Of a DNA stretch of 64,000 nt, positions 1 to 64,000 are shown in pieces (the first letter of the stretch is position 1; each line of letters starts with the position of its first letter). The notes beneath the pieces are model-generated. The model worked only from the letters and a program-made list of their open reading frames with translations, had not been told where the DNA came from and searched no databases. The stretch is from Microbacterium oleivorans NBRC 103075 (GTDB lineage Bacteria; Actinomycetota; Actinomycetes; Actinomycetales; Microbacteriaceae): the NCBI RefSeq assembly GCF_001552475.1, contig NZ_BCRG01000002.1, positions 62,001-126,000 of the forward strand, read 5' to 3'. Made by a program: the position numbers and the translations under genes.

Positions 1-930
1 CGAGGCGGGATCGAGGAGGAGTCGGTAGATCTCCGACAACTCCCGCCACTGGAGGGCGTGTCCCCGGAGGGTGTCGAGATCGAGCCGCGGGAACTCGTGG
101 CGGAACGCGTCGTACACACCGCGCTCGCCCTCGACGAGCACTTCGCGGCCCGTCAGCATGACCAGGTAGTCGCGCCAAAACGCCCCGATCTGCTCGCCGG
201 TGTTCGCTTCGATCGGCAGCCAGTAGTCGTTCTCGATCTCGCTCTGCTCGCTGTGCGAGAGGCCCATGAGGACGTAGTTGTGGATGAGCTCGTGGTCGCG
301 AAGAGGCTCGCCCGTGGAGTTGAGGCTCTCGAAGATCTGCTGCGCGTTCGCCTGACCGCCCAGGGTGATCGACACGTGCTCGAGTTTGCGGAGGCCGCGC
401 CAGATGCCGGCGGCCTCGTCGGGGCGGATCTGGCTACGGAAGAACGCGTAGTTGTCGTCGAAGCGCGAAACCCGGTCGGCGTCGGCGGGGGAGCGGCGAT
501 CGAGGACCACACTCTCGAAGACGTCCGCCCAGGCGCGGTGCGGGCGCAGCTTGGTGCGTCCCGGCTCGTCGCTTCGCACGAGGACGGCCTCGAGTTCGCC
601 AGCCAGCGCGGGGTCGTCGTCGCGAAGGGTGTGGTGCAGTGCCGCGATCAGAAGCATGAGGGTCGTCACGCGCTGCTGGCCATCGATCAGGACGAGGTGA
701 GCATCGTCGGCCGCCGAGGTACTCGCCGTCGAAAGGATCGACCCGATGAAGTGGGTCTGGCCGTCCTCGGTGTCGGCGACGGCGCGGATGTCGCCGAGCA
801 GCTGCTCGCACCCGCCGATGTCCCATCGATACTGCCGTTGATAGACGGGGACGACGATCGTGGTGTCGGAGGCGGAGAGCCAGTCGATCGTGTTGACGGC
901 TGTCGCATCGACGTTCGTAGCAGTGCTCAT
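1..930 (-). CDS. DUF262 (GmrS-like) domain protein, N-terminal part, gene cut by window edge
   Basis: The reading frame is open from an ATG at 930 to the first base, so 310 codons are visible and the C-terminus lies outside the window. It shows the two hallmark DUF262 motifs: a PVYQRQYRW box at residues 28-36 and IDGQQR at 82-87. DUF262 is the nucleotide-binding half of GmrSD type IV restriction enzymes and of several other phage-defence proteins. The C-terminal partner domain (DUF1524 HNH in GmrD) cannot be seen. A GGGGA ribosome site precedes the ATG, and a TAAAAT -10-like box lies at 952-957. The gene is divergent from the next gene. The domain call is confident; a defence role is inference, because solitary DUF262 proteins are also common outside defence loci. 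Confidence 0.85.
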   Translation of the reverse strand, partial: MSTATNVDATAVNTIDWLSASDTTIVVPVYQRQYRWDIGGCEQLLGDIRAVADTEDGQTHFIGSILSTASTSAADDAHLVLIDGQQRVTTLMLLIAALHHTLRDDDPALAGELEAVLVRSDEPGRTKLRPHRAWADVFESVVLDRRSPADADRVSRFDDNYAFFRSQIRPDEAAGIWRGLRKLEHVSITLGGQANAQQIFESLNSTGEPLRDHELIHNYVLMGLSHSEQSEIENDYWLPIEANTGEQIGAFWRDYLVMLTGREVLVEGERGVYDAFRHEFPRLDLDTLRGHALQWRELSEIYRLLLDPAS

Positions 931-988
931 GTTCCCCGAAATGCTCGTCGAATTTTACCGGTCGAGTCTACTGAGGCTCGCGGAGCTG

Positions 989-1006
989 CTAGGTAGGCTT
1001 ACCTAA
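989..1006. promoter_or_regulatory. Iron-box-like palindrome (possible DtxR/IdeR operator)
   Basis: The 18-bp sequence CTAGGTAGGCTTACCTAA has the half-sites CTAGGT and ACCTAA, close to the DtxR/IdeR iron-box arms TTAGGT/ACCTAA. The arms are 6 bp apart, whereas the classical 19-bp box has 7. It lies where the -35 element of the rightward gene should be, since a TAAAAA -10-like box is at 1017-1022. It could also affect the divergent DUF262 gene. Binding is inferred. Confidence 0.4.
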
Positions 1007-2725: not shown

Positions 2726-3705
2726 TCGTCACCCTGACAACGAACCCCTCGCTCGACCGCACGATCGCCCTCGAGGCACCGCTGCGCGTCGGCGAGGTCC
2801 AGGGCGCCCTGAGCGCTCGGGAGGATGCCGGGGGCAAGGGCATCAACGTGGCCCGCGTGGTGGCCGCGGCATCCCGCCCCACCCTCGCCGTGCTTCCGCT
2901 CGATCCGACCGACCCGTTCGCCGGCGCGCTCGACGCGACCGGGATCAACGTCCACACCGTCGCGCACGACGGCGCGACCCGTGCGAACGTCACGATCGCC
3001 GACGCGGCGGGTGTCACGACGAAACTCAACCTGCCCGGGGCGGCGTTCACCGCCGAGGATGCCGCGGCCCTCACAGCCGCGGTCGTCGCCGCCTCCGAGG
3101 GCGCGTTGTGGCTCGTGCTGGCAGGTTCGCTCGCTCCCGGACTGCCCGACGACTACTACGTCCAGGTCATCGGCGCTGTGCGGTCCGCCTGGGGCGCGGC
3201 CGCTCCGCGCATTGCCGTCGACACGTCGGGTGCGGCGCTGGCCGCCGCCGTCGCCTCGGGCCGGCCGGACCTCATCAAGCCCAACGACGAGGAGCTCGCC
3301 GAGCTCGTCGGACGCGATGTGGATGCTGCACTCGCCCTCCCCGACGCGGTCGCCGATATCGCCGCGGCTCTCGTCCCCGCGTCCGTGGGCGCCGCCCTCG
3401 TCACCCTCGGCGGCGACGGGGCGGTCCTCGTGACACCCGACGGCTCGTGGCACGGCACGCCCCCGCCGACCCGGGTGCGCAGCACCGTCGGAGCGGGCGA
3501 CAGTTCGCTCGCCGGATATCTGCTCGCCGAGACCGCCGGCGCTGAACCCGAGGACAGGCTGCGCTCCGGCATCCGCTATGGATCCGCTGCGGCTTCGTTG
3601 CCCGGCACCCAACCCCCGACCCCTGACGACCTGTCGACCGGCGACGTGCCGGTGCGACGGCTTCTGCAGAAGGACAACCCGACCACTGGAGGTCACCGTG
3701 ACTGA
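2722..3705 (+). CDS. fruK: 1-phosphofructokinase (PfkB family)
   Basis: 327 residues, the usual length for FruK. It phosphorylates fructose 1-phosphate to fructose 1,6-bisphosphate in the cytoplasm. PfkB features are visible: the N-terminal TNPSLDRTI segment, the GGKGINVARV glycine motif near residue 37, and the C-terminal TVGAGDS anion-hole motif with the probable catalytic base Asp260. Its ATG overlaps the repressor stop by 4 nt, and its own end overlaps the start of fruA by 8 nt. The repressor, kinase and permease are thus made as one coupled unit, consistent with fructose import as fructose 1-phosphate. Confidence 0.93.
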   Translation: MIVTLTTNPSLDRTIALEAPLRVGEVQGALSAREDAGGKGINVARVVAAASRPTLAVLPLDPTDPFAGALDATGINVHTVAHDGATRANVTIADAAGVTTKLNLPGAAFTAEDAAALTAAVVAASEGALWLVLAGSLAPGLPDDYYVQVIGAVRSAWGAAAPRIAVDTSGAALAAAVASGRPDLIKPNDEELAELVGRDVDAALALPDAVADIAAALVPASVGAALVTLGGDGAVLVTPDGSWHGTPPPTRVRSTVGAGDSSLAGYLLAETAGAEPEDRLRSGIRYGSAAASLPGTQPPTPDDLSTGDVPVRRLLQKDNPTTGGHRD

Positions 3706-5758
3706 GATCATCACCGCGGAACTCGTCAGTATCGACGAGCCGCTCGGCGCCGACAAGCGCGCCGTCATCGAGGCGCTGGCGCAGCGCGTCGCGTTGCAGG
3801 GGAGGGCCACCGACGGTGCTCGCCTCGCCGCCGACGCGTGGGCGCGGGAGGAGAAGGACGAAACCGGCCTTCCCGGTGGTATCGCGATCCCGCACGCGAA
3901 GAGCGCCGCGGTGACGCAGGCCTCGCTCGCCTTCGCCCGCCTGAGCCCCGGCGTCGACTTCGGCGCGGAAGACGGCGGCGCAGACCTCGTCTTCCTCATC
4001 GCCGCTCCCGACACCGCGGCGGAGGAGCACCTCGCCGTGCTGTCGAAGCTCGCCCGCAGCCTCATGCGCGACGACTTCACCGCGGGGCTGCGTGCCGCGA
4101 CGACGGCGGACGAGGTCGTCGCCATCGTGCGCGACGCGATCTCTGACGCGCCCGCCGCCGCCGCGCCCGAGACCCGCGCCACCGCCCGCGCGACGGCCGA
4201 GACGTCCGCCGACGACGCACTCATGATCAACGGGCGCCCCGCGCGGATCGTCGCCGTGACCGCCTGCGCGACGGGCATCGCCCACACCTTCATGGCCGCC
4301 GACGCGCTCACTGCGACGGGCCAGAAGGAGGGCGTCGACCTCACCGTCGAGCCTCAGGGGTCGAGCGGTTACAAGGCCATCGACCAGCGCATCATCGACG
4401 AGGCGGACGCCGTCATCTTCGCCGTCGACGTGGACGTCCGCGAGCAGGCGCGTTTCGCCGGCAAGCCCGTCGTCCGCTCCGGCGTCAAGCGCGGCATCGA
4501 GCAGCCCGCGCAGATGCTGCGCGAGGCCGTCGCCGCGGCGAAGAACCCGAACGCGGCGCGCGTGCCCGGTGCGGGTGCGGGCGCGGCCGCATCGGCCGGG
4601 AGTGCGGCGCCGACCACGCTCGGTGGCACGGTGAGACGCGCTCTGCTCACCGGCGTCAGCTACATGATCCCGTTCGTCGCCGGTGGTGGTCTCCTCATCG
4701 CTCTCGGCTTCGCGCTCGCGGGCTACCAGATCGCCTCGCCGCACGAAGGCACGGACGTCAACAACGCGGTGTACACGCTCCAGAACTTCACCCTCTGGAA
4801 TCTGCCCGATCAGGGCCTGCTCTACTACCTCGGCGCCGTGGCGTTCCAGATCGGTGGGCTGTCGTTCGGCTTCCTGGTGCCGGCCCTGGCGGGTTACATC
4901 GCCTACGGCATCGCCGACCGTCCCGGCATCGCGCCTGGATTCGTCGCGGGTGCCGTCGCGAGCTTCATGGGCGCGGGCTTCATCGGTGCCATCGTCGGCG
5001 GTCTTCTCGCCGGTCTCGCCGCCTGGTGGCTCAACCGCCTCGAGGTCCCGCGCTGGCTGCGTGGTCTCATGCCGGTCGTCATCATCCCGCTCCTCGGCTC
5101 GATTTTCGCGTCGGGTCTGCTCCTCATGGTGTTCGGTGGACCCATCGCCGCGCTGTCGGTCGCGCTGAACGGCTGGCTGTCCAGCCTTACGGGAGCCGGC
5201 GTCATTCTGCTCGGCGTCATCCTCGGCCTCATGATGTGCTTCGACCTCGGCGGACCGGTCAATAAGGTCGCCTACGGCTTCGCCACGGCGAACCTCGCGC
5301 AGGGCATCGCCGGCGACGAGCGCTATCTGCAGATCATGGCCGCGGTCATGGCCGCCGGTATGGTACCGCCGCTCGCCATGGCGCTCGCGTCGACCGTCCT
5401 CGGCCGGAAGCTGTTCACGGAGCCCGAGCGCGAGAACGGCAAAGCAGCCTGGCTGCTGGGCGCCGCCTTCATTTCGGAGGGAGCGATCCCGTTCGCTGCG
5501 GCGGACGTGTTCCGCGTCATCCCGGCCGCCATGTTGGGCGGTGCGGTGACCGGTGCCATGTCGATGGCGTTCGCCGTCACCTCCCGTGCCCCGCACGGTG
5601 GCGTGTTCGTCTTCTTCGCCATCGACAACTTCTGGCTGTGGATGTTCTCGATCGCCGTCGGAACTGTCATCAGCGCCGTCACCGTCGTGCTGCTGAAGCG
5701 CTACGCGCGTCGTCGTCCGATCGACGTCGATGTGCCCGCCGTCGCCGTCACGGCATAG
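3698..5758 (+). CDS. fruA: PTS fructose-specific transporter EIIABC
   Basis: 686 residues, a full single-chain fructose permease. EIIA spans about residues 1-150, with the phosphorylated His66 in GIAIPHAK. EIIB spans about 185-290, with Cys190 in TACATGIAH. The EIIC membrane domain covers about 310-675, with many hydrophobic helices. It imports fructose and phosphorylates it to fructose 1-phosphate using phosphate passed from HPr. The GTG at 3698 is chosen because GGAGG at 3688-3692 lies 5 nt upstream and this is where EIIA homology begins; the open frame runs further upstream only as an overlap with fruK. Linkers between domains are Ala/Thr-rich. Confidence 0.95.
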   Translation: MTEIITAELVSIDEPLGADKRAVIEALAQRVALQGRATDGARLAADAWAREEKDETGLPGGIAIPHAKSAAVTQASLAFARLSPGVDFGAEDGGADLVFLIAAPDTAAEEHLAVLSKLARSLMRDDFTAGLRAATTADEVVAIVRDAISDAPAAAAPETRATARATAETSADDALMINGRPARIVAVTACATGIAHTFMAADALTATGQKEGVDLTVEPQGSSGYKAIDQRIIDEADAVIFAVDVDVREQARFAGKPVVRSGVKRGIEQPAQMLREAVAAAKNPNAARVPGAGAGAAASAGSAAPTTLGGTVRRALLTGVSYMIPFVAGGGLLIALGFALAGYQIASPHEGTDVNNAVYTLQNFTLWNLPDQGLLYYLGAVAFQIGGLSFGFLVPALAGYIAYGIADRPGIAPGFVAGAVASFMGAGFIGAIVGGLLAGLAAWWLNRLEVPRWLRGLMPVVIIPLLGSIFASGLLLMVFGGPIAALSVALNGWLSSLTGAGVILLGVILGLMMCFDLGGPVNKVAYGFATANLAQGIAGDERYLQIMAAVMAAGMVPPLAMALASTVLGRKLFTEPERENGKAAWLLGAAFISEGAIPFAAADVFRVIPAAMLGGAVTGAMSMAFAVTSRAPHGGVFVFFAIDNFWLWMFSIAVGTVISAVTVVLLKRYARRRPIDVDVPAVAVTA

Positions 5759-5792
5759 TCTCGAGATACCGACTCAAGGAGGAAGAATCACC

Positions 5793-6062
5793 ATGGCCGA
5801 ACGGACCGCAACCGTCGCGAGCAGCTCCGGACTGCACGCTCGCCCCGCCAAGCTCTTCGTGCAGGCGGTCAAAGAGACGGGCGTCCCCGTCACGATCGCC
5901 GTGCCCGGTGGACCCGACCAGAACGCCGGCAGCATCCTGACCCTCATGGGGCTCGGTGCCACCCAGGGCACGGTCGTGACGCTCAAGGCCGAGGGCGACG
6001 GAGCCGACGAGGCTCTGGACAAGCTCGTCGCCTTTATCGAGACGGACCACGACGCCGAGTGA
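5793..6062 (+). CDS. ptsH: Phosphocarrier protein HPr
   Basis: 89 residues, typical for HPr. His15 in GLHARPA is the phosphorylation site that receives phosphate from EI and passes it to EIIA. The regulatory serine region of low-G+C HPr is not obvious here (QNAGSILTLM around residue 46 is the matching stretch). The ATG at 5793 has a strong AAGGAGGA site at 5776-5783. It lies 34 nt after fruA and ends the fru operon. EI (ptsI) is not in the window. Confidence 0.95.
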   Translation: MAERTATVASSSGLHARPAKLFVQAVKETGVPVTIAVPGGPDQNAGSILTLMGLGATQGTVVTLKAEGDGADEALDKLVAFIETDHDAE

Positions 6063-6081
6063 GTCTCGACCCCCACGAACG

Positions 6082-6124
6082 ACGGATGCCGCGGAGCGAG
6101 AGCCCCGCGGCATCCGTCTTTTCG
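6082..6124 (+). terminator. Terminator of the fru operon, built from a GGATGCC inverted repeat
   Basis: A perfect 13-bp stem (ACGGATGCCGCGG, 6082-6094, paired with 6105-6117) is followed by CTTTTC. The arms contain the 7-mer GGATGCC and its complement, which recurs throughout the window. It may also terminate the convergent gene ending at 6134. Confidence 0.8.
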
Positions 6125-6133
6125 TGTGTCAGA

Positions 6134-6772
6134 TCACAGGTCGGCGGACTGGCCCGGCTCGAGCTCGAGGAACTCGCCGCCGTTCTGCTCCGTCGCCCAC
6201 TTGAGACGGTCCCGGTGCATCGCGAGGCCGACGCGGGAGAGGGTCATGTCGTGGGTACCGAAGGCCCGCCGCGGCTTGACCGCCAGCACGTAGTCGATGG
6301 CCTCGCCGATCTTCAGCCACGGGGCGCCGACGGGGGCGGCGAGCAAGCCCACCTCGATGCCTTCGGGCACCGCGTAGGAGTCGCCGGGATAGTAGAAGTC
6401 GTCGTTGACCAGGACGCCCAGGTTGTCGATCACCGGGATGGACTCGTGGATCACGCTGTGCGTCCCGCCGAAGAAACGCATGCGGAAGGGGCCGACTTCC
6501 ACCTCGTCTCCGACATCGACCTTCGTGACGTCGTATCCGGATGCCGCGGCCACGACACCCTCCGGACCGAAGACGGGGACACCGGGCGCCTGCGACAGGA
6601 TGGCGTCGAGCTGGGCGGGGGTCCAGTGATCGGGGTGCTCATGGGTGAGGACGACGCCTACGAGGTCGTTGAGGTCGTCGAGCGGCAGGGTGAAGGAACC
6701 GGGATCTATGAGGAGGGTCTTTCCCTCGCTGTCGAGTCGCAGACAGGCATGTTCGTGCTTCGTAACGCGCAT
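6134..6772 (-). CDS. Metallo-beta-lactamase-fold metal-dependent hydrolase
   Basis: 212 residues. The zinc-binding HxHxDH motif appears as HEHPDH at about residues 44-49, with further conserved His in GGTHSVIH and GTHDM. The compact size resembles the YtnP/UlaG-like or UPF0173 subgroup of MBL-fold enzymes rather than true beta-lactamases. The ATG at 6772 starts an MRVTKHEHA segment that matches the family N-terminus; an upstream extension of the frame is unlikely to be coding. It is convergent with ptsH, so it is not part of the PTS operon. The substrate cannot be predicted. Confidence 0.85.
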   Translation of the reverse strand: MRVTKHEHACLRLDSEGKTLLIDPGSFTLPLDDLNDLVGVVLTHEHPDHWTPAQLDAILSQAPGVPVFGPEGVVAAASGYDVTKVDVGDEVEVGPFRMRFFGGTHSVIHESIPVIDNLGVLVNDDFYYPGDSYAVPEGIEVGLLAAPVGAPWLKIGEAIDYVLAVKPRRAFGTHDMTLSRVGLAMHRDRLKWATEQNGGEFLELEPGQSADL

Positions 6773-6886
6773 GGTCCCAGTCAACCCACGAGGGGGGCGG
6801 GAGGCAAGGCGATGCCGATTTTGCAGGGCTGTGAACCTCGTGCATAATTGAACGGTTGCCTCCGCAAGGAGGGAACGAAAAAGTAC

Positions 6887-6962
6887 GGCCCCATCGTATA
6901 GCGGCCTAGTACGCCGCCCTCTCACGGCGGTAACGCGGGTTCGAATCCCGCTGGGGTCACCA
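6887..6962 (+). tRNA. tRNA-Glu (anticodon CTC)
   Basis: A complete cloverleaf can be drawn. The acceptor stem pairs GGCCCCA (6887-6893) with TGGGGTC (6952-6958). The anticodon stem CCGCC/GGCGG encloses loop CTCTCAC with anticodon CTC. The T arm is GCGGG-TTCGAAT-CCCGC. The discriminator A and an encoded CCA end at 6962. It reads GAG, the preferred Glu codon in this G+C-rich genome. Confidence 0.95.
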
Positions 6963-6966
6963 CACT

Positions 6967-7002
6967 GACGAAGCCCTCGACCATCAGGTCGAGGGCTTCG
7001 TC
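6967..7002 (+). terminator. Terminator after tRNA-Glu (bidirectional)
   Basis: A perfect 16-bp stem (GACGAAGCCCTCGACC, 6967-6982, with 6987-7002) with an ATCA tetraloop starts 4 nt after the tRNA CCA. It also lies just downstream of the convergent DUF4349 gene, so it can serve both transcripts. Confidence 0.85.
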
Positions 7003-7019
7003 GTTGTCGGCGCGGAAGG

Positions 7020-8075
7020 TCAGCTTTCGGGGGACCGCGACGCGCGCCGGCGTCGCACGCGCCGAACGACCTGCACGATCGCGACGACGATCCCGGCGAC
7101 GACGAGCCAGGGGAGGAGGAAGCCGAGTCCGACGACGATCCCGTTGAGGGTCACGACGAGGGTGTTCCATCCCGTGGAGAGGCCATCCCCGAATCCCTGC
7201 GGGTCGGCCGCGACGCTCTGGCCCGGCGCAGTGATCGTCACGGTCGCGCTCGACAGCGCCACGTCGTCCTTGAGCGTCTCCGCCTGGGCGCGGAGCGAGT
7301 CGAGTTCCGCCTGCCGCTGGGCGAGCGCGTCCTCGGCGGTGAGAAGGTCGCTGGTGGATGCGGCATCCGTGATGAGGCCGCGCAGGCGGTCGACGGAGGC
7401 GTCCAGCGCCTCGATCCGGGCCCGGAGATCGGTCGTCTCCGCCGTGACGTCCTCCCGCGAGATCTGAGACGCGCGGACGGTGCCGAGTTCCTCGAGGTCG
7501 GTCAGGAATGAGGCGAGACCGGAGGCCGGCACCCGCACCGTGATCCGTGCATCGCCGGGGCCCGTCGCAGCTTCGCGGCCGGTGGACTCCGCGGCGTCCG
7601 CGACATTCAGCGACTCGACGTACCCTCCGGATGCCTCGGCTCGGTCGCCGATCGCCTGTGCGGCGGCGGCCGGGTCGTCGGCTTCGAGGGTGGCCTGGGC
7701 ACGGGCGACAACGGCACGCTGTCCGACCTCGGTCGACGGAGTTCCCGAGTCCTGGAGGTCCGTGGTGCCGCCCCCGCTCATCTCGACGCCCTCGTCGCCC
7801 CCGTCCTCGCCTGGCCGCGGTGCAGACTCCTCCGAGACGGCGCTCCCCGCTGACGAAGCACCCCCACTCACGTTGCCGAGCATCGGCCCGACGAACCCCG
7901 CGACCACGATCACGGCGGCAGCAGCTCCTGTAAAGGCCCAGGCCCGCCGACCGCGGCGGCGCGAGGTTTCGCGCGCGTCGGTCATCGACGCCGCGATCTC
8001 GGCGAAGAGCGCTCGTTCGATCTCGTCCTGCCGGGTCCGGATGAGTTCGGGCAGCCGGATGTCCTCTGCGGTCAT
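7020..8075 (-). CDS. DUF4349 membrane protein, encoded with the sigma factor
   Basis: 351 residues. Layout: a cytoplasmic N-terminus of about 50 residues, one membrane helix near 60-80 (AWAFTGAAAAVIVV), a Gly/Ser/Glu-rich linker, the DUF4349 domain with a long coiled coil rich in Leu/Ala/Asp, and a C-terminal membrane helix followed by an Arg-rich tail. The ATG at 8075 overlaps the stop of the sigma gene (ATGA) and has a GGAGGGG site. DUF4349 proteins are envelope proteins of unknown function. Its position suggests that it controls or responds to the sigma factor, although it has no recognisable zinc anti-sigma motif. Confidence 0.8.
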   Translation of the reverse strand: MTAEDIRLPELIRTRQDEIERALFAEIAASMTDARETSRRRGRRAWAFTGAAAAVIVVAGFVGPMLGNVSGGASSAGSAVSEESAPRPGEDGGDEGVEMSGGGTTDLQDSGTPSTEVGQRAVVARAQATLEADDPAAAAQAIGDRAEASGGYVESLNVADAAESTGREAATGPGDARITVRVPASGLASFLTDLEELGTVRASQISREDVTAETTDLRARIEALDASVDRLRGLITDAASTSDLLTAEDALAQRQAELDSLRAQAETLKDDVALSSATVTITAPGQSVAADPQGFGDGLSTGWNTLVVTLNGIVVGLGFLLPWLVVAGIVVAIVQVVRRVRRRRASRSPES

Positions 8076-8632: not shown

Positions 8633-8736
8633 GGCATCCTCGTTCGTTCTGTCGATGGGGGAGTGTCGCGTCACCCGGCATCGTCTCAGACAACTCGAAA
8701 GGTACTCTTAGGTTCGCCCCCGCATGAAAGGTCCCC

Positions 8737-9831: not shown

Positions 9832-9840
9832 GCTCGATCG

Positions 9841-12467: not shown

Positions 12468-12582
12468 CGTCGGTCTCCTGTCCCTCAGAGCCCACAGCGT
12501 GCCACGGTGGATCCCTCGCGGGGCTGTCGTGAGACGCGGTGTTACGGCGCGGCGGGCATCGGCGGCTGCGGCGAGCCGGTGA

Positions 12583-12659: not shown

Positions 12660-12696
12660 AGGCTGTCGCGGGCGCCATCCGACATCAGGAGACACC

Positions 12697-50702: not shown

Positions 50703-50713
50703 GTATATGGCCG

Positions 50714-51509: not shown

Positions 51510-51565
51510 GTCCGGGGCATCCCGCCGACTAGACTGAACCGGACGTACCGACGAATGGAGAGACC

Positions 51566-52120: not shown

Positions 52121-52127
52121 GAGCGCC

Positions 52128-53713: not shown

Positions 53714-53756
53714 CGGCGTGGCGACGGTCCGTGGCCGCGGATATGATCGGGGAACT

Positions 53757-54488: not shown

Positions 54489-54493
54489 GCCGC

Positions 54494-55849: not shown

Positions 55850-56006
55850 GACTGCCCTTTCCCAGGTCTGCACTCACCCTAGTTCTCTCATAGCCGATGC
55901 ACGGGCAGCGACGCCCTCCCACGCGTTTGCCAGCGCCGTTCGCTAGGCTGGAACGTCGAAGATCGGCCGCGCACCCCTGAGTCCGGCTGGAGGAGGGCGG
56001 CGGTTC

Positions 56007-57785
56007 GTGAGATTCGTGTGGGCGATCATCGCCTTCGTGCTGGCCACGTTGATGATCGGTGCGAGCATCGCGCAGCGCACGATCCTCGAAGCGCCCGAGA
56101 CCGAGACGGCCAAGATCGCCACCGAGGGCAGCGCACCGTACGTCCTCATCGACGGGTCGGTCCTCGCCAGCCATCCGGGCGCGCAGACCTTGCGCATCGC
56201 TGGCGATAACGAGGTGTTCATGGCCTACGGGCGGACTCAGGACGTGAGCGCCTGGCTGGCGCCGTCCAGCTACGAGCACGTCACCCTGAACCGCGAGGGT
56301 GCGCCCGTGGCGAAGACCGTAGCGGCATCCGCTCCCGTCGAGGGCGCGTCTCCGACAGCGACGCCCGAGGGGTCGGACCTGTGGCTCCAGGAGTTCGAGC
56401 AGGACCGCTCGCTGGCCACCACGCTGCGTCTGCCGACGGACATGAGCGTCCTGGTCGCCTCAGACGGGACGGCTGCCGCGCCGTCCACGATGAGCGTCAC
56501 ATGGCCGACAGGTGCCACGACACCCTGGGCGGGGCCGCTTCTCGTCGGCGGCATCGTGATGGCCGTGATCGGCCTCGTCCTCTATGTCCTCGCGCTTCGT
56601 CACGTCCGGCGATCGCGAGGCCCCCGTCGCAAGGGGCTGCCGTTGACGGCGACCCAGCCGATCGACCTGTCCATCGAACAGGCGGAGAAGGGCGTGATCG
56701 CCGCCGCGCCTGGTCGCCGGCGTCTGGGATCGAAGCGGCGCCCCTTCGTCGCGATCTCCGCCGTCCTGATCGGTGGAATCGCTCTGACGGGGTGTTCCCC
56801 CGAATCATGGCCCGACCTGCAGCCCGCTCCGACGGCGTCCCCGACTCCGTCCGTCATCGTCCCCGAGGGACAGGGTGCGCCTGCCGTCACGGAGACGCAG
56901 GCAGAACGAATTCTCGCGCGCATCTCGGAGAAGGTCGCCGCGGCGGACAAGGCGAACGACCCCAAGGCCGCAGCAGAGCGTCTCACCGGTCCCGCGCTCG
57001 TCGAGCGGGAGACGAACTACCGTCTCCGCAAGAAGCTGCCGAAAGCTGAGGCGTTGCCCGCCCTCCCTTCGGGCGACATGACCGCCTTCCTGCCCCAGGC
57101 GAAGAACGACTGGCCGCGGATGTTCCTCGCCGTGGTCGAGGACGCGGACGGAGTGGCCACTGTGATGACCGCGACGCAGGAGAGCCCGTGGGCGGAGTAC
57201 AAGGTGGCGTACGTGTCCAGCCTCCGCGCCGACGCCAGCATGAACCTCGCCGCTCCGTACGTCGGCGCGGTCGCGGTCGAGCCGAACTCTCCCTTCCTCC
57301 TCATGGCACCCGAGAGTCTCGCGGCCGCCTACGCGAACGTCCTGGACAAGGGCGCCAAGAGCGAGTTCGCGAGCATGTTCGACGAGAAGACCGACACCTT
57401 CCGACCTCTCGTCGCCGAGAACCGCGCGACCCTGCTGAAGAACTTCAACAAGACGGGCGAGGAGACCGGTCGGGTGTCCTTCAAGGCGGAGGCCGGATCG
57501 TCCGACCCGCTCTCGCTCGTCACCCTCGACAGCGGCGCGATCGTGGCCGTCACAGTGACCGAGAACGAGACGATCGTTCCGACCGACGGCGACGCTGTGA
57601 TCAAGCTGGGCGACAATGTCGTGGTGAAGGCTCTATCCGGTGTCTCTCAGTCGAGCACCGGATTCCGAACCCGCTACACCGATCAGCTGTACTTCTTCGT
57701 TCCGGCCCAGGGGTCGAACCAGAAGATCCAGCTGCTCGCTTCCCGTTCCAACGTCCTCGACGCCAAGGTGGTCAAGAAAGAGTGA
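56007..57785 (+). CDS. Large membrane protein with an internal lipobox-like segment
   Basis: 592 residues, no family that I can name. Segments: membrane helix at 4-22; an extracytoplasmic domain of about 150 residues; second helix at 177-199 followed by RRSRGPRR; a cytoplasmic loop; a third hydrophobic segment at 246-262 preceded by KRRPF and ended by LTGC (Cys263), which looks like a lipoprotein signal in the middle of a protein; a Pro/Thr/Ser linker; and a C-terminal domain of about 300 residues, probably outside. GGAGG lies upstream of the GTG. Coupled to the thioredoxin gene by a GTGA overlap. Confidence 0.75.
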   Translation: MRFVWAIIAFVLATLMIGASIAQRTILEAPETETAKIATEGSAPYVLIDGSVLASHPGAQTLRIAGDNEVFMAYGRTQDVSAWLAPSSYEHVTLNREGAPVAKTVAASAPVEGASPTATPEGSDLWLQEFEQDRSLATTLRLPTDMSVLVASDGTAAAPSTMSVTWPTGATTPWAGPLLVGGIVMAVIGLVLYVLALRHVRRSRGPRRKGLPLTATQPIDLSIEQAEKGVIAAAPGRRRLGSKRRPFVAISAVLIGGIALTGCSPESWPDLQPAPTASPTPSVIVPEGQGAPAVTETQAERILARISEKVAAADKANDPKAAAERLTGPALVERETNYRLRKKLPKAEALPALPSGDMTAFLPQAKNDWPRMFLAVVEDADGVATVMTATQESPWAEYKVAYVSSLRADASMNLAAPYVGAVAVEPNSPFLLMAPESLAAAYANVLDKGAKSEFASMFDEKTDTFRPLVAENRATLLKNFNKTGEETGRVSFKAEAGSSDPLSLVTLDSGAIVAVTVTENETIVPTDGDAVIKLGDNVVVKALSGVSQSSTGFRTRYTDQLYFFVPAQGSNQKIQLLASRSNVLDAKVVKKE

Positions 57786-58726
57786 GTACTCCCGCCCCCG
57801 GCGCCGTCCTGCGCGGCGCCGTCGATCTCTCATCCCTGCGGAATCGCCCCGCGGACGCGCCCCCCGCGCCCTCGGGTTCCCAGCCCGCCGGGCAGGCACA
57901 GGCATCCCGTCTCATCTTCGACGTCACGGATGCCGACTTCGGACAGGTCCTCGAGCTGTCGAAGACGGTTCCCGTCGTCGTCGATCTCTGGGCCGAGTGG
58001 TGCGGGCCGTGCAAGCAGCTGAGCCCGGTCCTCGAAAAGCTCATCACCGAACTCGCGGGCCGCGTCGTGCTGGCCAAGGTCGACGTCGACGCCAACCCGC
58101 AGCTCGCACAGAGTTTCCGGGCGCAGTCCATCCCGCTCGTGGTTGCCCTCGTGGCCGGGCAACCGGTCCAGCTGTTCACGGGGGCCGTGCCCGAAGGGCA
58201 AGTGCGCGAGGTCCTCACGCAGCTTCTGCAGCTCGCTGCGCAGCACGGTGTGACGGGGACGATCCCCCTGGATGGGCCTCCTGCGGAGGGGGAGGAGGAG
58301 CAGCCTGCTGCCCTTCCGCCGCTGCACCAGGCGGCCTTCGACGCCATCGAGGCGGGGGACTACGCCGCAGCAGCGACGGCTTACGAGCAGGCCCTCACCG
58401 AGAATCCTCACGACGAGGACGCGAGAGCGGGACTCGGACAGGTGCACCTCCTCGCCCGCGTGCAACACCTGGACCTCACGGCAGCGCGCGCTGCGGCGGC
58501 ATCCGCCCCTCGAGACGTCCAGGCGCAATTCGACGTCGCCGATCTCGACCTTGCCGGTGGTCACGTCGACGATGCTTTCGCGCGCCTGCTCGACCTGTTC
58601 GCCGAGCTCCCGGGTGACGAGCGCGCACCGGTTCGGGTGCGACTCCTCGAGCTCTTCGGCGTGGTCGGGGACGCCGACCCGCGCGTCATCCGCGCACGCA
58701 GTCGTCTCGCCAGTCTGCTGTTCTGA
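57782..58726 (+). CDS. Thioredoxin-TPR fusion protein (CnoX-like)
   Basis: 314 residues. A thioredoxin domain (about 45-150) with the active-site WCGPC at 73-77 is followed by a TPR region (about 180-310). The E. coli protein with this arrangement, CnoX (YbbN), is a chaperone-redox protein that hands oxidised clients to GroEL; there the active-site motif is SxxC. Here both cysteines of CGPC are kept, so it may also be a functional oxidoreductase. The GTG at 57782 overlaps the previous stop; first 40 residues are Pro/Ala-rich. Confidence 0.88.
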   Translation: MSTPAPGAVLRGAVDLSSLRNRPADAPPAPSGSQPAGQAQASRLIFDVTDADFGQVLELSKTVPVVVDLWAEWCGPCKQLSPVLEKLITELAGRVVLAKVDVDANPQLAQSFRAQSIPLVVALVAGQPVQLFTGAVPEGQVREVLTQLLQLAAQHGVTGTIPLDGPPAEGEEEQPAALPPLHQAAFDAIEAGDYAAAATAYEQALTENPHDEDARAGLGQVHLLARVQHLDLTAARAAAASAPRDVQAQFDVADLDLAGGHVDDAFARLLDLFAELPGDERAPVRVRLLELFGVVGDADPRVIRARSRLASLLF

Positions 58727-58729
58727 CGA

Positions 58730-58767
58730 AGATCGGGTCCGGGCTCACGCCCGGACCCGATCTCGTT
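58730..58767. terminator. Bidirectional terminator between the thioredoxin gene and glgB
   Basis: A perfect 15-bp stem (AGATCGGGTCCGGGC, 58730-58744, with 58749-58763) and TCAC loop sits between two convergent genes that end at 58726 and 58769. It can end both transcripts. Confidence 0.85.
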
Positions 58768-58768
58768 G

Positions 58769-60904
58769 TCAGCCCTGGTGTCGCAGCCAGAGGACGCCGA
58801 GCGGGGGGAGTGCGACGCGCGCGGTGCCCTCGGCATCCGTCATCACCCCACCGAAGTTGCCCACGCCGGATCCGCCGAACTCCTGCGCATCGGAGTTGAG
58901 GACCTCGGTCCAGGTGCCGACCTCCGGCATCGCGAACTCCACGTCGTGACGCGGCGAGCCGGCGAAATTGCACAGCACGACGACCGTGCCGCCGTCGTTG
59001 TCGCGACGCGCGAAACCGAGGACGTTGCTGTCGGGGGAGTGCGGCCACACCCGTGAGAACGCCTCACCGTCGCTGTCCCGAGACCACAGCGGCGCCTCCG
59101 CGCGGTAGGTGTGGTTGAGGGCAGACACGAAGTGCTGCAGCTGCTGATGGGCCGGCTGGTCCAGCATCCACCAATCGAGGCCCCGCCCCTCCGACCACTC
59201 GGACATCTGGCCGAACTCCTGCCCCATGAAGAGCAGCTGCTTGCCGGGGTGGCCCCACATGTAGGCGAGGAAGGCGCGCATGTTGGCCAATTGTTGCCAG
59301 TGGTCACCGGGCATGCGGGTGAACAGTGATCCCTTGCCGTGCACGACCTCGTCGTGGCTGATCGGCAGAACGAAGTTCTCACTGAACGCGTAGACGAACG
59401 AGAACGACAACTCGCCTTCGTGGTGGGCCCGGTAGAGCGGATCGCGACCCATGTAGACGAGCGAGTCGTTCATCCAGCCCATGTTCCATTTGAACCCGAA
59501 CCCGAGGCCGCCCTGGCTGGTGGGGGCGGTGACGCCGGGGAAGCTCGTTGATTCCTCGGCGATCATCGCGATCCCCGGGTAACGCTTGTAGGCCGTCGCG
59601 TTGACTTCCTGCAGGAACCGCATCGCTTCGAGGTTCTCGCGGCCGCCGTGGATGTTCGGCTCCCACTCGCCCTCCTCGCGGGAGTAGTCGAGGTAAAGCA
59701 TGGACGCGACAGCGTCGACGCGGAGACCGTCGACGTGGAACTCCTCGAACCAGTACAGCGCGTTCGCGACGAGGAAGTTCCGGACCTCGTTGCGGCCGTA
59801 GTCGAAGATGTATGTGCCCCAGTCGCGGTGCTCACCGCGACGCGGGTCGGGGTGCTCGTACAGTGGAACCCCGTCGAAGCGTGCCAGCGCGAACGCGTCC
59901 TTCGGGAAGTGCCCGGGCACCCAGTCCATGATGACGCCGATACCGGCCTGGTGGAGGCGGTCGATCAGGTAGCGGAGCTCGTCGGGAGTGCCGAATCGGC
60001 TCGTGGGGGCGTAGTAGCCCGTGACCTGGTAGCCCCACGACCCGCCGAACGGGTGCTCGGCGAGCGGCAGGAACTCGATGTGCGTGAAGCCCTGCTCGCC
60101 GACGTACGCGACCAGCTCGTCAGCCGCTTCGCGGTAGCCGAGTCCGGGCCGCCACGAGCCGAGGTGCAGCTCATACGTGGACATGGGCTTGTCGTGCAGC
60201 GACCCCGTCGAGCGAGCGGAGATCCACTCGTCGTCGGACCACGTGTACTCGCTCTCGGTGACGACGGATGCCGTCGCAGGCGGCACCTCGGCGCGCCGGG
60301 CCATCGGGTCGGCCTTCATGATCCACTGGCCGTCGGCGGTCAAGATCTCGAACTTGTAGGCCGAGCCCACCCCGATGCCCGGGACGAAGAGCTCCCACAC
60401 ACCGCTGGAGCCGAGCGACCGCATCGCGTGCTGGGTTCCGTCCCAGCCGTTCAGGTCGCCGACGACGCGGACGGCTCGGGCGTTGGGGGCCCACACCGCG
60501 AAGGAGACGCCGCTCAGCGCGTCGTAGTGACGCACGTGAGCGCCGAGGACGTTCCAGAGCTCTTCGTGACGCCCCTCGCGTATCAGGTGCAGGTCGACTT
60601 CCCCGAGGGTGGGAAGGTGGCGGTACGGGTCGTCGATCCGGTACTCGGGTGCGCCCTCGTAGGTCGCGACGATGTCGTAGGCGGTCGGCTGGGTATCGGC
60701 GGAGCCCTCCCACACGCCCGCGCGGACGTGCGTGAGCTCCACGCGCGTGCCGTCGGAGAGGACGGCGGTCACCGTCTGGGCGAAGGGACGCCGGGCACGG
60801 ATGACCCAGTCGTCGCCGTCGCGGTGGGGGCCGAGCACGTCGTGCGGCGCGTGGTAGGCGCCGGCACCGACGGCATCCAGGATCGATTCGTCAGGACGGG
60901 TCAT
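58769..60904 (-). CDS. glgB: 1,4-alpha-glucan branching enzyme
   Basis: 711 residues. It introduces alpha-1,6 branches into glycogen-like glucan. Two N-terminal beta-sandwich (CBM48-type) parts precede the GH13_9 barrel. The nucleophile is the Asp in GLRVDAVASMLYLDYSR and the acid/base the Glu in MIAEESTSFPGV. AGDEFGQM-like FMGQEFGQMSEW is near the C-terminus. The ATG overlaps the glgE stop by 4 nt. Minus-strand operon glgX?-glgE-glgB. Confidence 0.96.
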   Translation of the reverse strand: MTRPDESILDAVGAGAYHAPHDVLGPHRDGDDWVIRARRPFAQTVTAVLSDGTRVELTHVRAGVWEGSADTQPTAYDIVATYEGAPEYRIDDPYRHLPTLGEVDLHLIREGRHEELWNVLGAHVRHYDALSGVSFAVWAPNARAVRVVGDLNGWDGTQHAMRSLGSSGVWELFVPGIGVGSAYKFEILTADGQWIMKADPMARRAEVPPATASVVTESEYTWSDDEWISARSTGSLHDKPMSTYELHLGSWRPGLGYREAADELVAYVGEQGFTHIEFLPLAEHPFGGSWGYQVTGYYAPTSRFGTPDELRYLIDRLHQAGIGVIMDWVPGHFPKDAFALARFDGVPLYEHPDPRRGEHRDWGTYIFDYGRNEVRNFLVANALYWFEEFHVDGLRVDAVASMLYLDYSREEGEWEPNIHGGRENLEAMRFLQEVNATAYKRYPGIAMIAEESTSFPGVTAPTSQGGLGFGFKWNMGWMNDSLVYMGRDPLYRAHHEGELSFSFVYAFSENFVLPISHDEVVHGKGSLFTRMPGDHWQQLANMRAFLAYMWGHPGKQLLFMGQEFGQMSEWSEGRGLDWWMLDQPAHQQLQHFVSALNHTYRAEAPLWSRDSDGEAFSRVWPHSPDSNVLGFARRDNDGGTVVVLCNFAGSPRHDVEFAMPEVGTWTEVLNSDAQEFGGSGVGNFGGVMTDAEGTARVALPPLGVLWLRHQG

Positions 60905-62976
60905 GAGCGTGCCTTCACATGGAGGATGTGGACGGGTTCAGCGAACGCGTCGAGTCGGACGTAGTTGTGTTCGTTCCAGGTCCAGCGGGCGCCGGTGAGG
61001 AGGTCCTCGACGTCGTAGTCGTGCCCGCGGGGAAGGCCCCAGACCTCGGAGTCGATGTGCACCGTCGTCTCGCGCGCGGAGTGCGGATCGACGTTCGCGA
61101 CGACGATGATCGTGTCGACCTCGCCGGCGGGGGAAAGGGCCGCCGGGAGACTCTTGACGTAGGCGAGGATCGCGTCGTCGTCGGTTCCCTGGAGGTGAAG
61201 CCCGCGCAGCTGACGCAGGGCGGGATGTGCGCGTCGGATCTCGTTCAGACGACGCAGGAACGGCGCGAGCGAATCGCCGGACGCCTCGGCTGCGGCCCAA
61301 TCGCGCACCTTGTACTCGAACTTCTCGTTGTCGATGTTCTCTTCCGCACCGGGACGGGCCACGTTCTCGTAGAGCTCGTAGCCCGCGTACACGCCATAGT
61401 TGGCGCCTGCGGTCGCGGCGAGCGCGGCACGGATGCGGTAGGCCGCGCGTCCACCGAACTGCAGGTACTCGGTGAGGATGTCGGGCGTGTTCACGAAGAG
61501 GTTGGGACGCATGAAGTCGGCGGTCTCATCGGAGATCGACGCGAAGAACTCTTCGAGTTCCTCCTTCGTGTTCCGCCACGTGAAGTACGAGTAGCTCTGC
61601 TGGAAGCCGCTCTGTGCCAGCGCGCGCATGGGCATCGGACGCGTGAACGCCTCCGCCAGGAAGACCACGTCGGGGTGCTCGGCGTTCACCGTGTGGATGA
61701 GCCACTCCCAGAACTGAAGCGGCTTCGTGTGCGGGTTGTCGACGCGGAAGATGTTCACCCCCTGGCGGATCCAGTGCTGGACCACGCGCAGAACCTCCGC
61801 GCGAATCCCCTGAGGATCGTCGTCGAAGTTGATGGGATAGATGTCCTGGTACTTCTTCGGCGGGTTCTCTGCGAATGCGATCGAGCCATCCGGGAGCGTC
61901 GTGAACCACTCTGGGTGCTCGGTCACCCAGGGGTGATCGGGAGCTGCTTGAAGGGCGAGATCCAGAGCGACCTCCAGACCGTGCGACTGGGCTGCCGCAA
62001 CGAACGCCCTGAAGTCCTCGAGAGTGCCGAGGTCGGGGTGGACCGCGTCGTGCCCGCCCGCGGCGGAACCGATGGCCCAGGGTGATCCCGGGTCACCCGG
62101 GCCGGCGTCGAGCGTGTTGTTCGGGCCTTTGCGGTTGACTTCCCCGATCGGGTGGATCGGAGGCAGGTAGACGACGTCGAATCCCATGTCGGCGACGGCG
62201 GGGAGCCGTCCTGCCGCCGTTCGGAACGTGCCACTCTGCACGGAACCGTCGGGACGCCGGACCGCCCCTTCGGAGCGGGGGAAGAACTCGTACCAGGCGC
62301 CGACTCCCGCCCGTTCGCGTTCGACGAGGAGGACGTTCTCCTCGTGGACGGTGTGCAGCGAGATCGCCGGACGGTCGGCGAAGAAGCGCGCGATGCCGGG
62401 ATCGCGGACGACGATCAGTGCTGCGGCATCATCGACGGCGTCATCGCGGAGGGCGCGTGCGGCAGCCGTGAGCGCGGTCCTCTCGTCACTGGGACGCGTC
62501 TTCTCCGAGGCGGCGCGATCGAACAGGCGCGCACCCATCTCGCGCATCAGGATGGGGTCGACGCCGGCGGCGATCTTCACATCCGCGGCGTGGCGCCACG
62601 TCGCGTAGTCGTCGGCGAAGGTCTCGAACCGGAACTTCCAGGTGCCCTGCTCGAGCGGCGCAACCTGCACCTGCCAGGTGTCGAAACCGTCATCGAGCGG
62701 GCCGAGGCGGTGCAGCGTCGCGGTCCCCGAGGGGGCGGTGAGCCGAAGGTGAACGCCGATGCGGTCGTGACCGTCGCGGAAGGCGGCCACGGTGAACGGA
62801 ACAGCTTCGCCGACGAACGCCGTCGGTGCGAATCGGCCGCCGGGGACACTGGGTCGATGGGAGGCGATCGGGATCCGGCCGTTGCGGATGCCGGCATCCT
62901 TTCGGGTCGCCTTCGCAGGGCGGAGGGGGATCTCTGCGGAGCTGCGGACGGAAGCGGGGGAGATCTGTGAGGCCAC
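60901..62976 (-). CDS. glgE: Alpha-1,4-glucan:maltose-1-phosphate maltosyltransferase
   Basis: 691 residues, GH13_3. GlgE extends alpha-1,4-glucan using maltose 1-phosphate. The nucleophile is the Asp in FRVDNPHTKPLQFWEW and the acid/base the Glu in VFLAEAFTRP. YLPPIHPIGEVNRKG and KKYQDIYPINFD are diagnostic of GlgE. The GTG at 62976 is 6 nt from TAAGTT (62983-62988, minus strand), so a leaderless start at its own promoter is likely. TreS/Pep2, which would supply maltose 1-phosphate, are not in the window. Confidence 0.96.
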   Translation of the reverse strand: MASQISPASVRSSAEIPLRPAKATRKDAGIRNGRIPIASHRPSVPGGRFAPTAFVGEAVPFTVAAFRDGHDRIGVHLRLTAPSGTATLHRLGPLDDGFDTWQVQVAPLEQGTWKFRFETFADDYATWRHAADVKIAAGVDPILMREMGARLFDRAASEKTRPSDERTALTAAARALRDDAVDDAAALIVVRDPGIARFFADRPAISLHTVHEENVLLVERERAGVGAWYEFFPRSEGAVRRPDGSVQSGTFRTAAGRLPAVADMGFDVVYLPPIHPIGEVNRKGPNNTLDAGPGDPGSPWAIGSAAGGHDAVHPDLGTLEDFRAFVAAAQSHGLEVALDLALQAAPDHPWVTEHPEWFTTLPDGSIAFAENPPKKYQDIYPINFDDDPQGIRAEVLRVVQHWIRQGVNIFRVDNPHTKPLQFWEWLIHTVNAEHPDVVFLAEAFTRPMPMRALAQSGFQQSYSYFTWRNTKEELEEFFASISDETADFMRPNLFVNTPDILTEYLQFGGRAAYRIRAALAATAGANYGVYAGYELYENVARPGAEENIDNEKFEYKVRDWAAAEASGDSLAPFLRRLNEIRRAHPALRQLRGLHLQGTDDDAILAYVKSLPAALSPAGEVDTIIVVANVDPHSARETTVHIDSEVWGLPRGHDYDVEDLLTGARWTWNEHNYVRLDAFAEPVHILHVKARS

Positions 62977-63021
62977 GTTCCGAACTTACCGTTGCCGGGC
63001 GGACCCGGAAACGGGCCTGGA

Positions 63022-64000
63022 TCACTCGGCCCGGAACAGGTACATTGACGTTCCCGCCGCCGCGAACGTCTCACCCGGTGCGCGGACCGCAGCGTCGCCG
63101 CACGGACGTTCGTCCTCGCTCGACCACAGCCTGACGAAGCGCGTCACGCCCTCGAGCGAGGGGAGCGTGATGTCCGTGCCGTTCTCCCGTCCGTGGATGA
63201 CGAGCAGCGTCCGGTTCGGCGCCTCGTGCTCGGGCGTCGACTGCGCGTCGTACTGGAGCGTGCGGTGTGACGGGTCGGTCCACTGGTCGACCGACATCGT
63301 CTGGCCCGTCTCGTCGTACCAGTCGATCACCGATGCGCTCGGGACGACCTTGTCAGCGTGGGCGAAGCGGACCGGCCGGAGAGCGGGGTTCTCGCGCCGG
63401 ATACGGGTCAGCGCCTCGACGTGAGCCCGGAGATCCTCCTGCCACGACTGGAGTCCCCAGTCGTACCACGTGAGCGCGGTGTCGTGGCAGTAAGCGTTGT
63501 TGTTGCCCTGCTGGGTTCGACCGATCTCGTCCCCTGCCGTCACCATCGGGACGCCGGCCGACAGAAGCAGTGTCCCCAGGAGGTTGCGCATCGCGCGTCG
63601 CCGTGTCGCGAGGACACCCTCGTCGTCGGTCGGTCCCTCGAAGCCGTGGTTGAAAGAACGGTTCGTGTCCGCCCCATCGCGTCCGTGCTCGCCGTTCGCC
63701 TCGTTGCGCTTGACGTCGTAGGACACGAGGTCGTGAAGCGTGAAGCCATCGTGCGCCGTCACGAAGTTGACGCTCGCCAGCGGTCCTCGCTCTGCGCTGA
63801 AGGTGTTAGCCGACCCCGCGAGGCGCGACGCGTAGCCGCCGATGCCCACCGGGGTGACGTCCGCGCGGCGGGAGTAGTCGATGTCGCTCAGCCAGAAGTT
63901 CCGGACGCGGTCGCGGTACCGGTCGTTCCACTCACTCCAGCCGTCGCCGAAGGCACCCGTCTGCCAGCCCCCCATTCCGACATCCCACGGCTCGGCGATC
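63022..64000 (-). CDS. glgX: Glycogen debranching enzyme GlgX, C-terminal part, gene cut by window edge
   Basis: 325 codons are visible. The N-terminal half lies beyond the right edge. GH13_11 signatures: GMGGWQTGAFGDGWSEWNDRYRD, NFVTAHDGFTLHDLVSYD, NEANGEHGRDG and GTLLLSAGVPMVTAGDEIGRTQQGNNNAY. It hydrolyses alpha-1,6 branches of glycogen. It lies 45 nt before glgE on the same strand, completing a glucan cluster with a debranching, an extending and a branching enzyme. Confidence 0.95.
   Translation of the reverse strand, partial: IAEPWDVGMGGWQTGAFGDGWSEWNDRYRDRVRNFWLSDIDYSRRADVTPVGIGGYASRLAGSANTFSAERGPLASVNFVTAHDGFTLHDLVSYDVKRNEANGEHGRDGADTNRSFNHGFEGPTDDEGVLATRRRAMRNLLGTLLLSAGVPMVTAGDEIGRTQQGNNNAYCHDTALTWYDWGLQSWQEDLRAHVEALTRIRRENPALRPVRFAHADKVVPSASVIDWYDETGQTMSVDQWTDPSHRTLQYDAQSTPEHEAPNRTLLVIHGRENGTDITLPSLEGVTRFVRLWSSEDERPCGDAAVRAPGETFAAAGTSMYLFRAE

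What the first reader, a model, noticed from the sequence alone, without database searches (positions are those of the whole stretch)
1..64000. A 7-mer GGATGCC/GGCATCC is strongly over-represented on both strands and builds hairpins: uptake-sequence-like motif?
Reading through by eye I logged about 35 GGATGCC and 38 GGCATCC (the count may be off by a few), usually extended to GGATGCCG/CGGCATCC. With independent bases at about 68% G+C I would expect roughly 15 in total. The word sits in genes in all frames (often as xxG-GAT-GCC or GCA-TCC, against the normal C-ending codon preference). It also forms inverted-repeat hairpins at 6082-6117, 33791-33829 and 42105-42142, and a 14-bp palindrome in glgE near 62886. 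The two orientations are balanced, unlike KOPS or Chi. Dense, non-polar and duplicated in terminators is the pattern of DNA-uptake sequences in Neisseria and Pasteurellaceae. comM and dprA are in this window. Alternatives are a methylation or restriction site (it contains GGATG), a codon-pair effect, or a protein-binding motif.
Basis: partly seen in the sequence, partly recalled or inferred. Interest (0 to 1): 0.75.

Follow-up and report, generated by a model that had tools for sequence, protein, structure and literature searches.

The report
Microbacterium's genome-wide DNA watermark with dialects
The genome of this Microbacterium carries about 4,000 copies of one eight-letter DNA word, and some related species carry different but similar words; the word likely works as a tag by which these bacteria take up DNA of their own kind, which would be, as far as I could find, a first for Gram-positive bacteria.

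Summary
GGATGCC occurs 75 times in the window (13.6 expected), GGATGCCG 58 times (5.8 expected). The genome, a Microbacterium, holds 4,068 GGATGCCG, strand-balanced. It is the strongest 8-mer after synonymous-codon shuffling, 519 genic copies against about 100, and equally dense between genes. Inverted pairs form hairpins just after gene ends. Two foreign-looking islands have 5 and 2 sites per 20 kb against means of 27 and 23.

Key result: in 15 of 46 further family genomes sampled, mostly chosen for few GGATGCCG, a different but related word tops the list. Whole-genome counts confirm GGATGCGG (up to 4,331), GGATCCG (up to 9,980) and GGATGGCC (up to 1,938). These dialects follow clades on a ComEC tree, with some convergent repeats, like Neisseriaceae uptake-sequence dialects. 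ComEA, ComEC, DprA and two Tad pilus loci are present.

Uptake and the reading protein are untested; ComEA/ComEC gave no convincing dialect residues, and some phages share the word. A methylation-linked (HIP1-like) origin is the main rival. My searches found no report of this word.

The parts
6084..6115 (.). Inverted pair of GGATGCCG (arms 6084-6091 and 6108-6115), hairpin 22 nt after the end of the gene at 5793-6062; predicted terminator
   Evidence: fold -38.6 kcal/mol, z -8.5
33799..33821 (.). Inverted pair of GGATGCCG, hairpin about 100 nt downstream of the minus-strand gene at 33915-34910; predicted terminator
   Evidence: fold -35.9 kcal/mol, z -9.5
42108..42139 (.). Inverted pair of GGATGCC, hairpin 14 nt after the end of the gene at 41738-42094; predicted terminator
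   Evidence: fold -38.1 kcal/mol, z -5.4
62886..62899 (.).
2823..60878. The other dispersed copies of GGATGCC/GGCATCC, on both strands and mostly inside genes; with the four features above 75 in all between 2823 and 62899, full list
44455..45981 (+). ComM/YifB-family ATPase gene (that YifB is called ComM is recalled); possible helper of transformation
   Evidence: TIGR00368 415.7 bits, over its cut-off; PF01078, PF13541
45975..47141 (+). dprA, DNA-processing protein; possible helper of transformation
   Evidence: TIGR00732 209.1 bits, over its cut-off; PF02481, PF17782; query

Best explanation
GGATGCCG is a genome-wide, strand-balanced word in Microbacterium that likely works as a DNA-uptake sequence: a protein of the transformation machinery is predicted to bind it, so that free DNA of the same dialect would be imported preferentially. 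Shown: extreme enrichment beyond codon use; replacement by related words in other clades of the family; low density in two foreign-looking islands; inverted pairs after gene ends; genes for ComEA, ComEC, DprA and two Tad pilus loci. Inferred: DNA is caught by a Flp/Tad-type pilus or an associated protein that reads mainly the GGAT part, passed to ComEA and ComEC, protected by DprA and recombined. Because fragments with the word would enter more often, copies would accumulate by uptake-driven molecular drive, in genes at a synonymous cost and as inverted pairs reused as terminators. When the reading protein changes, the word would be rewritten genome-wide (dialects); when reading is lost, the word would decay.
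For: 4,068 copies in 2.98 Mb, 2,085/1,983 by strand. Top 8-mer after synonymous shuffling: 519 against 29 + 70. 71 of 88 Microbacterium genomes have over 500 copies per Mb (counted, bases rounded there), while 59 genomes of other families of the order have at most about 240 per Mb. Dialects: sample survey and whole-genome counts on 41 genomes; clade-following with convergent cases on a ComEC tree of 49. No orientation bias over 20 stretches of one complete chromosome, 234/222. 9 of 9 inward inverted pairs between genes lie within 150 nt after a gene end. Genes of least typical codon use have 0.78 sites per kb, most typical 1.46; islands with 5 and 2 sites per 20 kb. Sites more conserved than matched control words in 10 of 11 alignments, yet many positions turn over. 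ComEC/ComEA, two tad loci, the set needed or present in Micrococcus luteus transformation (PMC4322843, passages). Natural transformation shown in two Microbacteriaceae, Rhodoluna lacicola and Aurantimicrobium photophilum (PMC11577799, passages). Neisseriaceae dialects are the close parallel (PMC3630211, passages).
Against: No uptake data; Microbacterium competence was not found in my paper searches. The machinery does not predict the word: ComEC in 80 of 80 and a T2SSE-type ATPase in 73 of 73 genomes, including motif-poor ones. ComEA lies beside comEC in 45 of 49 sampled genomes and was not found there in motif-rich G034. No ComEA or ComEC residue convincingly follows dialect. Three of seven phages read carry the word about threefold over codon shuffles, which uptake does not predict. 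No bias to gene ends, unlike Pasteurellaceae (PMC2346458, abstract). Even spacing is weak and absent in two other dialect samples. Dialect replacement is also known for HIP words tied to methyltransferases (PMC4390886, passages). In most sampled genomes with few GGATGCCG no clear replacement word was seen.
Confidence: 0.6

Rival explanations
1. HIP1-like word: a DNA methyltransferase acts on the motif and a methylation-dependent repair or mutational process creates and keeps it; clades with another methyltransferase get another word.
For: HIP words have similar density (1,000 to 2,000 per Mb) and are replaced by alternates, each with a predicted methyltransferase (PMC4390886, passages). The GGATCCG dialect is palindromic as CGGATCCG. 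Phages partly sharing the word fit a process acting on resident DNA.
Against: GGATGCCG, GGATGCGG, GGATGGCC are not palindromes, whereas HIPs are. One-base neighbours of the word are at 0.5 to 2.7 times expectation against 6.5 for the word itself, so no shorter core stands out. The excess of post-gene inverted pairs is not explained. Methyltransferase content was not examined.
Confidence: 0.18
2. Chi-like recombination hotspot: a recombination nuclease of the RecBCD/AddAB/AdnAB kind reads the word and it is selected for repair.
For: Genome-wide excess and species-specific words also occur for Chi (recalled; HIP paper names Chi as such a class).
Against: No orientation bias: 234/222 overall, 62/65 in the first five stretches with negative G+C skew and 15/16 in three late stretches with positive skew; but the origin was not located and skew is weak there, and one chromosome only. 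Islands lacking the word and post-gene inverted pairs are not predicted.
Confidence: 0.1
3. Codon-pair, amino-acid or restriction-site effect: the word follows from protein coding or is a restriction or modification site by itself.
Against: Synonymous shuffles give about 100 against 519, and density between genes equals that in genes. Phages do not avoid the word: 4 of 7 within the range of codon shuffles, 3 above it.
Confidence: 0.03

Closest known systems
DNA uptake sequence (DUS) and its dialects in Neisseriaceae, read by minor pilin ComP
   Same: Thousands of copies of one short word on both strands, in and between genes; related words replace it in clades around a shared core; pairs in dyads; found in bacteria with transformation genes (PMC3630211, passages; ComP as receptor: PMC3868556, abstract start in listing).
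   Different: Unrelated word; Gram-positive actinobacteria; Tad rather than type IVa pilus loci in this genome; no receptor and no uptake shown; intergenic density not higher than genic.
Uptake signal sequence (USS) of Pasteurellaceae
   Same: Dense short word tied to competence; one orientation preferred in a reading frame (PMC2346458, abstract; here 211 of 233).
   Different: No bias to gene ends here, reported for all Pasteurellaceae in that abstract; different word and machinery.
HIP1 and alternate HIP words of cyanobacteria
   Same: Similar density; one word replaced by another in some lineages (PMC4390886, passages).
   Different: HIPs are palindromes tied to methyltransferases; most words here are not palindromes; methyltransferases not examined.
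Micrococcus luteus Flp/Tad-dependent transformation
   Same: Two tad loci, one with a fused or single TadB/C protein and a small Flp-like protein, plus comEA/comEC (PMC4322843, passages).
   Different: No uptake word was mentioned in the passages I saw; transformation of this Microbacterium not tested.

Membership tests
DNA uptake sequence (DUS/USS) | One short word hugely over-represented genome-wide on both strands | tested here: met
DNA uptake sequence (DUS/USS) | Excess not explained by coding or codon use | tested here: met
   519 against about 100 in synonymous shuffles; intergenic density equal
DNA uptake sequence (DUS/USS) | Inverted pairs between genes near gene ends (terminator-like) | tested here: met
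   9 inward pairs against 2 outward between genes, 9 of 9 after gene ends; 22 of 97 intergenic sites are in such close inverted pairs; terminator function itself not tested
DNA uptake sequence (DUS/USS) | Clade-following dialects around a shared core | tested here: met
   core GGAT except GGAGGCGC in G182
DNA uptake sequence (DUS/USS) | Low density in recently acquired DNA and phages | tested here: inconclusive
   two islands and atypical genes are low, but 3 of 7 phages are about threefold over codon shuffles
DNA uptake sequence (DUS/USS) | Transformation genes in the genome | tested here: met
   ComEC, ComEA, DprA, two TadA ATPases; the ComEC and ComEA full-length NCBIfam models and one of the two TadA matches are under their cut-offs, while PF03772 for ComEC and PF12836, PF10531 and TIGR00426 for ComEA are over
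DNA uptake sequence (DUS/USS) | Word-dependent DNA binding, uptake and transformation by a receptor protein | not testable with these tools
   no assay; ComEA/ComEC residue scan negative; pilins not compared
HIP1-type word | Palindromic word | tested here: not met
   GGATGCCG, GGATGCGG, GGATGGCC are not palindromes; only the CGGATCCG form is
HIP1-type word | Matching methyltransferase in the genome | not tested
Chi site | Orientation bias along the replichore | tested here: not met
   234/222 over 20 stretches of M. galbinum, balanced on both skew flanks; origin not located

The most novel reading that the evidence does not exclude
Microbacteriaceae own a DNA-uptake-sequence system that arose independently of Neisseriaceae and Pasteurellaceae, works through Tad-pilus transformation in Gram-positive cells, and has diversified into at least seven dialects sharing GGA(T), with convergent switches, so that sequence-specific sex structures a large bacterial family.
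Probability: 0.55. Interest if true: 0.92.

Novelty: new variant of a known kind. Interest (0 to 1): 0.85.

Why it matters
Uptake sequences are described for Pasteurellaceae and Neisseriaceae (PMC7811141, abstract start in the listing). A further, independent origin in Gram-positive actinobacteria, with several dialects inside one genus and natural transformation already shown in the family (PMC11577799, passages), would give a replicate experiment on how uptake words arise, spread through genes and switch; it would point to a new DNA-reading protein; and it would tell people how to design DNA that transforms Microbacteriaceae. It is directly testable by adding or removing one eight-base word.

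Tried and rejected
Codon-pair effect: rejected as a full explanation. Restriction target: phages do not avoid the word. Replication-strand marker: no bias. Known RNA element: at gathering thresholds Rfam finds one tRNA in the window. ComEC or T2SSE-type ATPases as predictors of the word: present in 80 of 80 and 73 of 73 genomes, so uninformative; a PilB-sized match (best E below 1e-130) occurs in 23 of 73 genomes and is missing in motif-rich G000, G010, G018 and G034. ComEA/ComEC as dialect reader: nothing convincing (25 ComEA and 26 ComEC sequences with a called dialect, out of 45 and 49). Even spacing: weak; p 0.036 (8-mer) and 0.07 (7-mer) with all blocks, 0.004 after I left out the block with the island, a choice made after seeing the data; not seen in the G056 and G035 samples. 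Gene-end bias inside genes: none. Literature: the listings show no paper on an uptake or over-represented word in Microbacterium or other actinobacteria; only listed titles and abstract starts were looked at, and most subscription papers are not held.

Limits: genes come from my own caller (it left a gap at about 16.9-18.0 kb and others). Expected values use a second-order Markov model or the pooled sample. Of 46 genomes sampled there besides G000 and G306, 15 have a dialect word as top 8-mer (14 with GGAT, one GGAGGCGC); in the others, among them G198, G161, G171, G202, G060, G088 and G040, no clear word was seen, but samples are only 5.7 to 120 kb. Genomes were mostly picked for few GGATGCCG. 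The GGATGCTG, GGATCCTG, GGATGCYC and GGAGGCGC dialects rest on samples of 21 to 60 kb only. Tree labels marked 'weak', and G078 (labelled 'none' there, later 2,775 GGATGCGG), were set. Rows lost: the first G151 stretch is all N, first contigs of G043, G026, G197 and others are short, 5 requested stretches do not exist. In one search I gave 49 of the 80 named loci; one was not held. One search kept the best 80 of 340. Names FokI, Chi traits, YifB = ComM and the reading of L096 genes are recalled or by eye.

Full report
What was checked. GGATGCC occurs 75 times in the window, 37 and 38 by strand, against 13.6 in dinucleotide shuffles; GGATGCCG 58 times against 5.75. They are the most over-represented 7-mer and 8-mer against a third-order Markov model. 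The whole genome (2.98 Mb, 20 contigs) has 2,085 + 1,983 copies of GGATGCCG.

Where it comes from. The nearest DprA relatives are Microbacterium oleivorans strains and an unnamed Microbacterium, 72 to 75% identity, and exact whole-genome counts tie unnamed genus members to named Microbacterium species (for example G033 and the M. esteraromaticum genome G323, both 1,200/1,186). In 88 Microbacterium genomes GGATGCCG has 379 (a 44% complete genome) to 4,967 copies, over 500 per Mb in 71 of 88. It varies widely in 148 genomes of other genera of the family. In 59 genomes of other families of the order it stays at or below about 240 per Mb.

Not codon use. In 464 kb of this genome (the window plus 20 stretches) the word has 519 genic copies; 100 synonymous shuffles that keep each protein and each gene's codon usage give 29 + 70 on average. 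Among all 8-mers it ranks first after that correction (12 shuffles). Density between genes is 1.38 per kb, in genes 1.26. Its 24 one-base neighbours are at 0.5 to 2.7 times expectation, the word itself at 6.5. Flanks are weakly constrained; GACGGATGCCG is the best 11-mer (91 against 3.4), probably in part because of hairpins.

Hairpins. Of 11 close inverted pairs that lie fully between genes, 9 point inward and all 9 sit within 150 nt after a gene's end, seven of them 7 to 22 nt after a plus-strand gene. The three in the window fold far better than shuffles. Terminator function is predicted, not shown. Forty further close inverted pairs lie in or partly in genes, 20 in each arrangement.

Foreign DNA. 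The least typical fifth of genes by codon use has 0.78 sites per kb, the most typical 1.46. Stretch L096 of this genome (by eye: CrcB-like, P-type ATPase and other accessory genes; no family search) has 5 sites in 20 kb, and L137 in M. galbinum, 63.5% G+C, has 2; the means of the 20 stretches each are 26.9 and 22.8. Phages: nine records have 6 to 21 copies of GGATGCC each. Of seven read whole or nearly whole, Min1, BonaeVitae, Clayda5 and Abigail lie within the range of codon shuffles; Efeko, PoRanda and Noelani have 13 against about 4 (Efeko also 13 against 1.9 in dinucleotide shuffles). So phages do not avoid the word, which argues against a restriction target, and one phage family partly shares it, which the uptake model does not predict.

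Dialects. In species with few GGATGCCG another word can be on top. G056: CGGATCCG, 172 against 29 in 100 kb (a palindrome, counted on both strands); G032: GGATGGCC, 49 against 7 in 80 kb. A survey of further genomes (stretches; analysis) added GGATGCGG (G035, G054, G167), GGATCCG (G063, G043), a GGATGGC form (G038), GGATGCTG (G050), GGATCCTG (G194, G234, G151), GGATGCCC with GGATGCTC (G237, G158) and GGAGGCGC (G182): 15 of 46 sampled genomes besides G000 and M. galbinum. In others, among them G198, G161, G171, G202, G060, G088 and G040 (40 to 120 kb each), no such word was clear. Whole-genome counts on 41 genomes confirm three dialects sharply: GGATGCGG 1,559 to 4,331 in five genomes (G035, G054, G078, G084, G167) and at most 1,105 elsewhere; GGATCCG 6,303 to 9,980 in three (G043, G056, G063) and at most 2,642 elsewhere, the largest being a 5.3-Mb outgroup; GGATGGCC 1,388 and 1,938 in two (G038, G032) and at most 525 elsewhere. 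On a ComEC tree of 49 genomes the dialects group: G032 with G038, G043 with G056, G035 with G054 and G078, G158 with G237, G151 with G234; while G063, G194 and G167 repeat a word on distant branches. The part kept in all but G182 is GGAT.

Turnover. Against 11 relatives aligned over 13 to 21 kb of the window, motif sites are conserved more than same-composition, same-frame words in 10 of 11 (12 of 20 against 5.1; 13 of 20 against 5.3; the exception 1 of 13 against 2.5), yet many positions are lost while the relatives keep a similar density. The word is thus kept as a density more than as fixed sites. The alignments are not independent of each other.

Machinery. comEC and comEA lie side by side at the end of contig 2. 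Two TadA-type ATPases sit in two tad loci: one with a TadB/C-like protein and a 67-residue protein of family DUF4244 that by eye carries a Flp-like site, the other with two proteins that look TadB/C-like, another 67-residue protein without a family match, two TadE-like proteins (one under its Pfam cut-off) and one Tad-like protein. In M. luteus both of two tad loci are needed for transformation and comEA/comEC orthologs are present (PMC4322843, passages). Natural transformation is shown in two other Microbacteriaceae (PMC11577799, passages). dprA and the ComM-family gene are in the window.

Reading. The set of features matches Neisseriaceae DUS dialects (PMC3630211, passages) better than HIP, Chi or a codon effect. 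What works like a DUS is not thereby shown to be one: the defining test, preferential uptake, cannot be run here, the reading protein is unknown, and the machinery genes do not distinguish motif-rich from motif-poor genomes. The HIP-like rival would need methyltransferase data that I did not obtain.

Noticed in passing
L239, L240, L242 (Microbacterium phages Efeko, PoRanda, Noelani; 17-kb Orlajensenviridae): Three of four small phages of this family carry GGATGCCG about threefold over codon shuffles (13 against about 4), the fourth (BonaeVitae, L241) does not; larger Microbacterium phages do not. Unexplained.
   Followed up: partly
L096:1-20000 (G000:C4:20001-40000): A 20-kb stretch of the window's genome with 66% G+C and only 5 GGATGCCG; by eye it holds CrcB-like fluoride exporters, a second enolase, a P-type ATPase and other accessory genes, so low word density may mark acquired islands.
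   Followed up: partly
L233 (G034), L199 (G002), L207 (G033), L220 (G243): No comEA was found beside comEC in 4 of 49 sampled genomes, one of them (G034) rich in GGATGCCG; whether comEA lies elsewhere was not checked.
   Followed up: partly
L112-L116, L221 (G198): This family genome lacks the word and instead shows a longer repeat containing AGGAGCCTGG (18 against 0.2 in 100 kb), which looks like an interspersed repeat.
   Followed up: no
L245-L267: 23 of 73 Microbacteriaceae genomes have a full-length PilB-sized type IV pilus ATPase match besides Tad ATPases; within Microbacterium it is patchy and not tied to the word.
   Followed up: no
L219, L176 (G182): The top word of this genome is GGAGGCGC (41 against 6.3 in 40 kb), possibly a further-diverged dialect that breaks the GGAT core.
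   Followed up: no
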